This document shows, piece after piece, positions 15,065 through 53,935 of a stretch of DNA of 64,000 nucleotides (within the stretch, counting starts at the first letter, position 1; every line of letters begins with the position of its first letter). The notes under the pieces were generated by a model. It made no database searches, was not told the origin of the DNA, and saw nothing but the letters and a program-made list of their open reading frames with translations. The stretch is taken from NCBI GenBank assembly GCA_016187335.1, contig JACPJW010000002.1, forward strand, positions 1 to 64,000, written 5' to 3'. A program made the position numbers and the translations under genes. The stretch is from Candidatus Aenigmatarchaeota archaeon (GTDB taxonomy: Archaea; Aenigmatarchaeota; Aenigmatarchaeia; GW2011-AR5).

Positions 15065-15124
15065 TTTTTGATAGAACTTTTTGTTAAAAAGTTCTTTTTG
15101 ATAGAACTTTTTGTTAAAAAGTTC
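15065..15124 (-). repeat. Perfect tandem pair of family 1 hairpins (2 x 30 bp)
   Basis: Units 15065-15094 and 15095-15124 are identical. Each contains GAACTTTTT-GTT-AAAAAGTTC, a 9-bp stem. The S17 stop codon TAG starts on the minus strand at the edge of this array. The perfect identity suggests recent duplication. Confidence 0.85.
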
Positions 15125-17863: not shown

Positions 17864-17956
17864 GTTCTACATCACCTGTCAAAGCGGAAGTGAAATGTCC
17901 GGCTGCCATAACCTGCACCAGAGTTCTTTTCCGATTCCGACATTCCATTCCACCTT

Positions 17957-18010
17957 TTTGATTAAACTTTTTTTTAAAAATTTTTTGATTAAACTTTTCT
18001 GAAAAGTTTA
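17957..18010 (-). repeat. Two adjacent family 1 hairpins, one decayed
   Basis: The right copy, 17990-18010, reads TAAACTTTTCAGAAAAGTTT on the minus strand and begins with the S19 stop codon TAA. A left copy at about 17957-17986 keeps TTGATTAAACTTTTTT but has lost most of its second arm. Confidence 0.7.
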
Positions 18011-25808: not shown

Positions 25809-25901
25809 TGGAACGCATTAAACAGAAAACCTATTTAAAATTAGACTGGATTTTATTTCGTGATTGCAGCGTGATTAGTTCTTTTCCGCCAGCGCTTTTT
25901 C

Positions 25902-25932
25902 TTTTTGATCAAACTTTTTCCTAAAAAGTTTG
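25902..25932 (-). repeat. Family 1 hairpin behind tRNA-Ile
   Basis: The minus strand reads CAAACTTTTTAGGAAAAAGT then TTGATCAAAAAG, 12 bases after the tRNA-Ile 3' end. It may help terminate the tRNA transcript. Confidence 0.65.
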
Positions 25933-25971
25933 AAAGGGCTGGATGGGACGGACCCGATTTTCATGAACTTT

Positions 25972-26003
25972 CCCTTTTGATTGGACTTTTTGGAAAAGTT
26001 CAA
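25972..26003 (-). repeat. Family 1 repeat forming the tRNA-Ile T-loop intron
   Basis: The minus strand reads TTGAACTTTTCCAAAAAGTC then CAATCAAAAGGG, hairpin plus tail as in other copies. In the tRNA, TGAACTTT also pairs with AAAGTTCA at the intron's far end, which could form the bulge-helix-bulge. Confidence 0.75.
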
Positions 26004-26062
26004 TTTGAACGGGCGACCTTCCGATTATCAGTCGGATGCTCTAGTTGCCCCGCCCTTTCCTT

Positions 26063-26161
26063 GTTTTCTTTCCGTGCATTCTTTTTCTTTCCGTGCATTC
26101 TTTTTCTTTCCGTGCATTCTTTTTCTTTCCGTGCACGCTTTCTTTTCTAAAGAAAGGGTGC
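26063..26161 (-). repeat. Family 2 hairpin plus 19-bp tandem array in the D-loop intron
   Basis: The minus strand opens with GCACCCTTTCTTTAGAAAAG then AAAGCGTGCACGGAAAG (family 2 hairpin). Four 19-bp units follow at plus-strand 26063-26081, 26082-26100, 26101-26119 and 26120-26138, each ending in CCGTGCAttc or CCGTGCAcgc. The array repeats the 3' tail of the hairpin. Confidence 0.85.
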
Positions 26162-26204
26162 CCAGGCTAAGCTACCGTCCCGCAAGCTTATCTTTCATTC
26201 ACGG

Positions 26205-26219
26205 GATTTTTAAATAAAT
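26205..26219 (-). promoter_or_regulatory. TATA box of tRNA-Ile
   Basis: The minus strand reads ATTTATTTAAAAATC about 25-35 bases before the tRNA 5' end. Confidence 0.55.
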
Positions 26220-27192: not shown

Positions 27193-27741
27193 ATGCCAGT
27201 AATCGTCATTTCAGGGCAGCCCGGATGCGGCTCGTCTACAACAGCGAAGCTGCTTGCAAAGAAACTGCGCCTGAAACACTTCTCAGTGGGCGACTACAAC
27301 AAAAGTCATGTTAGGAAAGGTAGAGAAACTGAAAAGAGCATAGTAATGTGGAAGACAAGAAAGGGCGCGAGCAAAAAGTTCCATATTGATAGTGACGCCT
27401 TGGCAAAGGAATACGCAAAGAAAGGCAATATCGTCATTGACGGAAAATTGCAGATAAAGCTTGCGAAAGGCTTCTATGATTTTTCCGTCTGGCTCAAGGC
27501 ACCGAAGAAAGTAAGGGCGGAAAGGTACGCAAGGCGGGACAAGATAACGCTGAAGGAAGCTGAAAAGAAACTGAGGGAAAAAGAGAAATTGGAGAGGAAA
27601 AACTGGCTGCGCATATACGGTTTTAACTACTTCAGCCAGCAGGAAGAAGCCGACCTGGTTCTTGACACAGCTGACAAAAAGCCTGAAAAGGTTGTGGAGA
27701 TTATCATCAGAAAGCTAAGGGCTCGTGGTCTAGTGGAATGA
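27193..27741 (+). CDS. cmk: Archaeal cytidylate kinase
   Basis: Converts (d)CMP to (d)CDP. The 182 residues begin with the P-loop ISGQPGCGSSTTAKLLAKKL and the archaeal-specific pattern continues with HFSVGDYNKS, NIVIDGKL, VWLKAPKKVRAERYARRD and RKNWLRIYGFNY. TTTAAACC lies about 20 bases before ATG 27193, so the transcript is probably leaderless; an upstream start at 27151 overlaps this TATA box. The last seven codons and stop lie inside a tRNA-Ala gene. Confidence 0.92.
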   Translation: MPVIVISGQPGCGSSTTAKLLAKKLRLKHFSVGDYNKSHVRKGRETEKSIVMWKTRKGASKKFHIDSDALAKEYAKKGNIVIDGKLQIKLAKGFYDFSVWLKAPKKVRAERYARRDKITLKEAEKKLREKEKLERKNWLRIYGFNYFSQQEEADLVLDTADKKPEKVVEIIIRKLRARGLVE

Positions 27742-27790
27742 CGCGGCGTTCGCAACGCCGAGGCCAGGGGTTCGAATCCCCTCGAGTCCA
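27719..27790 (+). tRNA. tRNA-Ala (CGC), overlaps cmk
   Basis: A 72-base cloverleaf. Acceptor GGGCTCG/CGAGTCC has the G3:U70 pair that identifies alanine tRNAs. Anticodon arm CGGCG-TTCGCAA-CGCCG gives anticodon CGC. T arm AGGGG-TTCGAAT-CCCCT; discriminator A. No intron. Its first 23 bases are the last codons of cmk. Confidence 0.95.
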
Positions 27791-28536: not shown

Positions 28537-28681
28537 GGGCTGGTAGATCAACGGAAGATCGCTTGCATGGCAAGAGGAGAAACTGTAATATCCTGAAAAG
28601 GAAATGAGGGTAGAGGGAGAGAAACGTCAGTTTCTTCTCCCCTTGTGCAAGAGGCTTCGGGTTCAAATCCCGACCAGTCCA
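28537..28681 (+). tRNA. tRNA-Ala (GGC) with anticodon-loop intron
   Basis: Acceptor GGGCTGG (28537-28543) pairs with CCAGTCC (28674-28680), again with the alanine G3:U70; discriminator A 28681. D arm GATC/GATC. Anticodon stem CTTGC/GCAAG; anticodon GGC at 28569-28571. A 73-base intron occupies 28573-28645, the canonical 37/38 site. Its ends (GGAGAAACTG and CAGTTTCTTCTCC) pair to give the bulge-helix-bulge. T arm TCGGG-TTCAAAT-CCCGA. Confidence 0.92.
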
Positions 28682-28683
28682 CT

Positions 28684-53735: not shown

Positions 53736-53935
53736 GGGCCTGTAGCTCAGATGACCCTTTGCACCCTTTTTAGAAAAAAGCGTGCACGGAAAAGGGAGGG
53801 TCAGAGAAACCTGGTAGAGTAGCGGCCTCTTAATATGGCGAAAGCCTTTAAGGGAAAGGAGTTAACCTAAGAGGAAAACCGTAGGTTGTCTCTCTGGTAA
53901 GCCGCCTGTCGCGGGTTCGAATCCCGTCGGGCCCA
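53736..53935 (+). tRNA. tRNA-Lys (CTT) with D-loop and anticodon-loop introns
   Basis: The acceptor GGGCCTG (53736-53742) pairs with CGGGCCC (53928-53934); discriminator A. D arm GCTC/GAGT, anticodon stem GCGGC/GCCGC with anticodon CTT at 53829-53831, T arm GCGGG-TTCGAAT-CCCGT. Insert one, about 53751-53809 (59 bases), splits the D-loop between G15 and C16. Insert two, 53833-53899 (67 bases), is at the canonical 37/38 site. Removing both gives a 74-base tRNA with D-loop AGCCTGGTA, identical to tRNA-Ile. TATA-like CATTTAAAAGA at about 53702-53712. Confidence 0.9.
53755..53795 (+). repeat. Family 2 hairpin in the tRNA-Lys D-loop intron
   Basis: GCACCCTTTTTAGAAAAAAG then CGTGCACGGAAAAG, the same element and strand sense as in the tRNA-Ile D-loop intron, with a shortened stem. 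Confidence 0.85.

What the first reader, a model, noticed from the sequence alone, without database searches (positions are those of the whole stretch)
25944..26181. tRNA-Ile split by introns in the D-loop and the T-loop
The 238-base gene folds to a normal 74-base tRNA only if about 118 bases in the D-loop and about 46 bases in the T-loop are removed. No intron is at the usual anticodon site. Non-canonical introns are known in some archaea with broad-specificity splicing endonucleases (e.g. ARMAN, Thermoproteales), but a D-loop plus T-loop pair made of dispersed repeats is striking.
Basis: partly seen in the sequence, partly recalled or inferred. Interest (0 to 1): 0.85.

Follow-up and report, generated by a model that had tools for sequence, protein, structure and literature searches.

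The report
tRNA-Ile gene interrupted by two introns
The only isoleucine-tRNA(GAT) gene found in this tiny archaeon (Candidatus Aenigmatarchaeota) carries two cut-out segments in unusual places. They are one case of small hairpin repeats that sit as removable introns in most of its tRNA genes and in its ribosomal RNA, which makes the lineage a good place to study how such introns spread.

Summary
On the minus strand, window 26181-25944 encodes tRNA-Ile(GAT) as 20 + 41 + 14 nt of exon separated by a 117-nt D-loop intron (19/20) and a 46-nt T-loop intron (59/60). Both junctions form bulge-helix-bulge (BHB) splice sites with 3-nt bulges; none of 200,000 shuffles of either intron matched the pairing. 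A same-genus genome has tRNA-Ile with neither intron, continuous at exactly the two predicted junctions. No second tRNA-Ile(GAT) was found in the 91%-complete assembly.

The gene is not an isolated oddity. Eight T-loop introns in this genome share the architecture (97.9% of cells paired, exon-intron covariation). Two hairpin repeat families supply introns: 44 and 94 exact motif copies, none for the reversed controls. The same repeats lie between protein genes and as BHB introns in 16S rRNA. One EndA and one RtcB gene are present; EndA has Ala in place of the catalytic Lys, and 70 of 70 readable relatives also lack Lys there.

Noncanonical and transposed BHB introns are known from Thermoproteales. 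New here are the phylum, the tie to dispersed non-genic repeats, and the Lys-less EndA. Splicing itself is inferred, not observed.

The parts
26162..26181 (-). tRNA-Ile(GAT) exon 1 (5' acceptor strand, 5' D-arm to G19)
   Evidence: 100% match of mature query positions 1-20; exact junction; continuous with exon 2 in sister genome G001
26045..26161 (-). Intron 1, 117 nt, D-loop position 19/20: family-A hairpin repeat expanded by a 19-nt tandem repeat
   Evidence: BHB central helix GCCT (26167-26164) with GGGC (26050-26047), bulges GGG and AAC; 19-nt repeats
26064..26139 (-). Four 19-nt tandem units (AGAATGCACGGAAAGAAAA; plus strand TTTTCTTTCCGTGCATTCT) inside intron 1
   Evidence: the repeat finder family D1, spacing 19
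26004..26044 (-). Exon 2: 3' D-arm, anticodon arm with GAT, variable loop, 5' T-arm to A59
   Evidence: 100% match of mature query; exact junctions
25958..26003 (-). Intron 2, 46 nt, T-loop position 59/60: family-B hairpin repeat
   Evidence: strict hBHBh': TTCA (26009-26006) with TGAA (25963-25960), 3-nt bulges AAT and AAT, 11-bp inner helix, T-stem as outer helix; same site and architecture in seven other tRNA genes
25944..25957 (-). Exon 3: T60, 3' T-stem, 3' acceptor strand, discriminator A73
   Evidence: 100% match of mature query
25880..25936 (-). Copy of the same hairpin repeats just downstream of the tRNA gene (CAGCCCTTT-CAAACTTTTTAGGAAAAAGTTTG-ATCAAAAAGAAAAAGCGCTGGCGGAAA), outside the mature RNA
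26205..26218 (-). TATA-box-like stretch TTTATTTAAAAATC about 24-37 nt upstream of the tRNA
   Evidence: read from the sequence; not tested as a promoter

Best explanation
A functional single-copy tRNA-Ile(GAT) gene of a Candidatus Aenigmatarchaeota archaeon is interrupted by two BHB introns, at 19/20 in the D-loop and 59/60 in the T-loop. In the precursor each intron folds back on itself; its last bases (GGGC or TGAA) pair with the exon just before the 5' splice site (GCCT or TTCA), which gives two 3-nt bulges around a 4-bp helix. EndA would cut after the second base of each bulge and RtcB would join the exons. Both introns are insertions of short dispersed hairpin repeats, absent from the same gene of a same-genus genome; the repeats also sit between genes and as BHB introns in other tRNA genes and in 16S rRNA. 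Shown: sequence anatomy, empty sites, exon-intron covariation, presence of EndA and RtcB genes. Inferred: transcription, cutting and ligation, the direction (gain here rather than loss in the sister), and that the repeats move as elements.
For: Exact BHB at both junctions, 0 of 200,000 shuffles each. Empty sites in same-genus genome G001 at exactly the predicted junctions, with a different intron in the anticodon stem instead. Eight T-loop introns at the same site: 97.9% of BHB cells paired against 71.9% shuffled, covariation 0.756 against 0.218 (0/500), and collapse in all slid controls; the intron 3' end changes with the exon (TTCG/CGAA, TTCA/TGAA, TCCG/CGGA). Repeats: AAAGCGNNNNCGGAAA 44 copies and AAAGTTNNATCAAAA 94 copies, reversed-pattern controls 0. 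16S rRNA spans 3,276 nt against a 1,478-nt model, with insertions made of the same repeats whose BHB splicing restores the consensus (GGATTAGAT^ACCCCGG, CCAGCC^GCCGCGG, GTGGCG^AAGGCG). One EndA, one RtcB. No intact second tRNA-Ile(GAT) found.
Against: No RNA data. The only EndA found lacks the catalytic Lys (Mja K156 / AFU K287 -> Ala), so either another residue or an undetected subunit must do its job. The D-loop inner helix has one mismatch (A.C) next to the bulge. The assembly is about 91% complete, so another tRNA-Ile(GAT) or another EndA subunit could lie in the missing part. No transposase was sought or tied to the repeats, so mobility rests on copy number and empty sites only.
Confidence: 0.93

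Rival explanations
1. Pseudogene: the tRNA-Ile was broken by two repeat insertions and an intact copy elsewhere does the work.
For: The inserts are repeat copies and the assembly is 91% complete.
Against: All exon stems are intact; the exons are continuous and nearly identical in the same-genus genome; both inserts are cleanly removable at BHB sites; no other GAT gene was found; the same would have to hold for most tRNA genes and the 16S gene of this genome.
Confidence: 0.03
2. The inserts are self-splicing (group I or II) introns or their remnants.
For: Group I introns do occur in archaeal rRNA (PMC6125680).
Against: 46 and 117 nt are too short; no Rfam match over the gathering score other than one intact tRNA in the window; junctions are BHB.
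Confidence: 0.01
3. The hairpin repeats are retained parts of the RNA (e.g. processing or termination signals shared with intergenic copies), and the tRNA is made by some other route such as trans-splicing or permutation.
For: Similar repeats sit after stop codons and tRNA 3' ends.
Against: All three exons are in order within 238 nt; a tRNA with a 117-nt D-loop and a 46-nt T-loop insertion could not form the usual elbow (established tRNA structure); covariation specifically links intron ends to exons.
Confidence: 0.02

Closest known systems
Multiple-intron tRNA genes of Thermoproteales and their large-scale intron transposition (Sugahara 2008, Fujishima 2010, as cited in PMC4090602 and PMC8450103)
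   Same: BHB introns at noncanonical positions including 59/60, up to three per tRNA, near-identical introns in different tRNAs
   Different: Different phylum (DPANN). Here the intron sequences also occur outside RNA genes as dispersed hairpin repeats, and in 16S rRNA of the same genome. I do not know whether the Thermoproteales introns have non-genic relatives.
16S rRNA BHB introns of Thermoproteales (PMC4496867, 13 loci across the gene)
   Same: Introns at several 16S positions, including near E. coli 781
   Different: In this genome the short 16S introns share their sequence family with the tRNA introns.
Caldiarchaeum tRNA-Thr intron gain (PMC3293823)
   Same: Gain of an extra tRNA intron seen by comparison with a near-identical locus that lacks it
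   Different: There the gain was linked to an integrase element at the tRNA; here two small hairpin repeats sit inside the loops.
ARMAN-2 and crenarchaeal/nanoarchaeal EndA with broad specificity (PMC6379350, PMC12397907, PDB 4fz2, 3iey)
   Same: Catalytic Tyr and His; a Tyr-His loop longer than in M. jannaschii, as in NEQ205 and ARMAN-2
   Different: Single-domain protein, no second subunit found, catalytic Lys replaced by Ala; the loop is not at the place described for CSL or ASL

Membership tests
archaeal BHB tRNA intron | Excision restores a complete cloverleaf tRNA | tested here: met
   75-nt cloverleaf, anticodon GAT; exons continuous in G001
archaeal BHB tRNA intron | Splice sites in two 3-nt bulges around a 4-bp helix | tested here: met
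   T-loop: 4 central, 11 inner, 5 outer bp; D-loop: 4 central (one G-U), 7 of 8 inner, 3 of 5 outer
archaeal BHB tRNA intron | Splicing endonuclease (PF01974) and RtcB ligase in the genome | tested here: met
   one EndA, one RtcB
archaeal BHB tRNA intron | Intron removed in vivo | not testable with these tools
   no RNA data
classical archaeal EndA catalytic subunit | Tyr, His, Lys triad | tested here: not met
   Tyr and His kept, Lys -> Ala in G000; Ala, Thr or Ser in 70 of 70 readable named relatives
EndA with CSL or ASL specificity loop | Lineage-specific loop with an RNA-contacting Lys | tested here: inconclusive
   Only the Tyr-His loop was compared; it is 15-21 residues with GPK in 95 of 100 sequences; the CSL/ASL position was not examined structurally
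transposed intron family (Thermoproteales type) | Similar introns in different tRNAs, varying between close relatives | tested here: met
   Eight T-loop introns of two repeat families; both Ile introns absent in the same-genus genome
group I / group II intron | Catalytic core | tested here: not met
   no Rfam match; 46 and 117 nt

The most novel reading that the evidence does not exclude
Short non-coding hairpin repeats of this lineage are mobile elements that become BHB introns when they land in tRNA or rRNA genes, because element arms plus a few bases complementary to the target make a ready BHB. They would be removed by a Lys-less EndA. This would be a direct link between a dispersed MITE/REP-like repeat and the origin of archaeal stable-RNA introns.
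Probability: 0.45. Interest if true: 0.85.

Novelty: new variant of a known kind. Interest (0 to 1): 0.62.

Why it matters
Where archaeal tRNA introns come from is an open question; the transposition described in Thermoproteales has no known mechanism (PMC4090602). Here the same small repeats are found between genes, in tRNA introns and in 16S rRNA introns, and a same-genus genome gives the empty sites, so gain can be dated and its mechanism tested. It also has practical consequences: a standard tRNA model finds only 13-14 tRNAs in this genome, which makes such genomes look tRNA-poor, and the conserved 16S regions around E. coli 519 and 787, used for primers, are split by introns. The Lys-less EndA across the phylum asks for a revised view of EndA catalysis or for an unknown subunit.

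Tried and rejected
Plus-strand reading of the gene (ARAGORN with introns gave a spurious tRNA-Pyl over 1.8 kb): rejected, the gene is on the minus strand. Automatic threading of all tRNA loci: clear for about ten genes, not trusted for the low-scoring ones (L052, L057, L006, L010, L054, L062 anticodon part), so I give no genome-wide intron count. Its first choice for the Ile D-loop junction (115 nt, 3 central bp) was replaced by the 117-nt junction, which has 4 central bp and equals the empty site in G001. Idea that introns differ from intergenic repeats by an extra third arm: only weakly supported (A: 5 of 20 against 0 of 12; B: 8 of 14 against 14 of 42), partly confounded by tandem copies, with RNA-gene limits drawn by hand. 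Idea that the EndA loop is the CSL or ASL: dropped, the position differs (PMC12397907). First DNA alignment of T-loop introns had one row a base short and was replaced. Papers on tRNA introns in Aenigmatarchaeota: none found in the held open-access library, which lacks most subscription journals.

Full report
OBSERVATION. The tRNA is on the minus strand, 26181 to 25944. Removing 26161-26045 (117 nt) and 26003-25958 (46 nt) leaves GGGACGGTAGCTTAGCCTGGCTAGAGCATCCGACTGATAATCGGAAGGTCGCCCGTTCAAATCGGGTCCGTCCCA, a 75-nt cloverleaf with anticodon GAT. The first intron interrupts the D-loop between G19 and C20, the second the T-loop between A59 and T60. There is no intron at 37/38.

SPLICE SITES. T-loop: T-stem, then TTCA pairing with TGAA at the intron's 3' end, bulges AAT and AAT, and an 11-bp helix inside the intron, a textbook hBHBh'. 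D-loop: GCCT with GGGC (one G-U pair), bulges GGG and AAC, inner helix of 7 of 8 pairs with one A.C mismatch. None of 200,000 shuffles of either intron had as much central and inner pairing. The whole precursor folds with z = -4.4 and with both intron helices present.

EMPTY SITES. BLAST of the mature sequence against 20 related genomes found in G001, the only other genome of the genus searched, a tRNA-Ile that reads through both sites without a base inserted...AGCCTGGCTAGAGC... and ...GTTCAAATCGGGT.... It has instead a different short intron in the 5' anticodon stem. Other relatives have intact tRNA-Ile (G002, G018) or introns at other D-loop sites (G015, G017, G026, G019, G033). So introns at this gene come and go at the level of species and genera.

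NO SECOND COPY. An anticodon-arm pattern with one mismatch allowed, RF00005 at E up to 10, and the mature-sequence BLAST each give one tRNA-Ile(GAT) locus in the held assembly, about 91% complete. A separate tRNA-Ile with anticodon TAT is itself split by an anticodon-loop and a T-loop intron (L051).

HOST. The closest EndA sequences in named genomes are nearly all labelled Candidatus Aenigmatarchaeota, best match 90% identity, and include archaeon GW2011_AR5.

THE GENOME-WIDE PATTERN. RF00005 sees only 13-14 tRNAs in this genome against 33-43 in intron-poor relatives. Among about 30 loci looked at, only two (Ala CGC at 27719-27790 and Pro TGG) were clearly free of introns. Clear threadings with BHB sites include His(GTG) D-loop, Arg(TCG) D-loop plus anticodon loop, Arg(TCT) anticodon stem plus T-stem, Val(CAC) D-loop, Ile(TAT) anticodon plus T-loop. 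Eight T-loop introns at the same site were aligned by their splice-site halves: 97.9% of cells pair (shuffles 71.9 +/- 3.2), covariation score 0.756 (shuffles 0.218), none of 500 shuffles as high, and every slid control falls to 29-59%. The alignment was built around the proposed structure, so the slid controls are favoured by construction; the exon-intron covariation at positions 55 and 57 is not.

THE REPEATS. Family A ends in AAAGC-GNNNN-CGGAAA: 44 exact copies in this genome and none of the reversed pattern; it is also enriched in several other genera of the class. Family B ends in AAAGTTNN-ATCAAAA: 94 copies, reversed pattern none, 27 copies in the half genome G001, few elsewhere. Both are hairpins whose basal bases vary but stay complementary: in family A, 30 of 43 copies have the 4 variable bases mirrored upstream of the CCTTT arm (shuffles mean 5.2, maximum 12); in family B, 35 of 39 (shuffles mean 5.3, maximum 13). 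About half of the family-A copies examined lie in tRNA or rRNA genes, the rest elsewhere, several right after stop codons or tRNA 3' ends.

16S rRNA. The 16S gene spans 3,276 nt against a model of 1,478. Several insertions are these repeats, and BHB splicing restores the conserved sequence: GCAA^TGGG, GTTGCCAGCC^GCCGCGGTAA, GTGGCG^AAGGCG, GGATTAGAT^ACCCCGG (junctions read by eye). A longer insertion near E. coli 910 encodes a LAGLIDADG-like protein (GFFDAEGG; read from the sequence), and a second long one follows. The 23S gene spans 4,283 nt against 2,987 and contains family-A and -B copies.

MACHINERY. One PF01974 protein, 202 aa, and one RtcB. EndA aligns without a gap over its C-terminus to M. 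jannaschii EndA and to A. fulgidus EndA: Tyr132, His148 and Arg172 are kept, but the position of Mja K156 / AFU K287 is Ala179 (K287 as the catalytic Lys of AFU from PMC12397907, K156 from my own knowledge). In 70 of 70 readable named relatives it is Ala, Thr or Ser. The Tyr-His loop is longer than in M. jannaschii and carries GPK in 95 of 100, similar in length to N. equitans NEQ205 and ARMAN-2. Some genomes of the class have in addition a 400-aa two-domain EndA; none of the family-level relatives of this genome does. How cutting works without the Lys is unknown; a loop Lys or a divergent subunit are the two options.

COMPARISON. Noncanonical positions (59/60 among them), up to three introns per tRNA and near-identical introns in different tRNAs are known from Thermoproteales and other Crenarchaeota (PMC4090602, PMC8450103), and introns at 13 loci of 16S genes too (PMC4496867). 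I therefore file the tRNA as a member of a known kind and the system as a new variant: another phylum, intron sequences shared with dispersed non-genic repeats, and a Lys-less EndA.

LIMITS. No transcription or splicing data. Mobility of the repeats is inferred from copy number and empty sites. RNA-gene limits were drawn by hand. The library of papers searched is open-access only.

Noticed in passing
L001:1474-2082 (-), and 70 named relatives: EndA of Aenigmatarchaeota lacks the catalytic Lys (Ala, Thr or Ser at the Mja K156 position) while Tyr and His are kept; no second subunit found in this family of genomes.
   Followed up: partly
L236:5179-8454 (-), 16S rRNA: 16S rRNA gene of 3.3 kb with at least seven insertions, several being BHB introns of the same hairpin repeat families, at least one longer one coding for a LAGLIDADG-like protein; conserved regions near E. 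coli 519 and 787 are interrupted.
   Followed up: partly
L251, 23S rRNA (G000:C2:208273-212555): 23S gene is about 1.3 kb longer than the model and contains copies of the same repeats.
   Followed up: no
window 53736-53935 (+): tRNA gene missed by the standard scan, probably Lys(CTT), with a family-A D-loop intron and a second intron in the anticodon loop.
   Followed up: partly
window 28537-28682 (+): tRNA-Ala(GGC) with a 73-nt intron near 37/38.
   Followed up: partly
L051 (G000:C2:431000-432100): tRNA-Ile with anticodon TAT, split by an anticodon-loop and a T-loop intron; similar TAT genes in relatives G007 and G009, so this lineage may read AUA with UAU.
   Followed up: no
window 10573, 15066-15110, 17956-17997, 20371, 25239: Family-B hairpin repeats in the ribosomal-protein gene region, between genes and twice inside reading frames.
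   Followed up: partly
genomes G022, G027, G032, G045, G056: Two EndA-type genes in one genome: a 400-aa two-domain protein and a 200-aa single-domain one (Lys-less where read).
   Followed up: no
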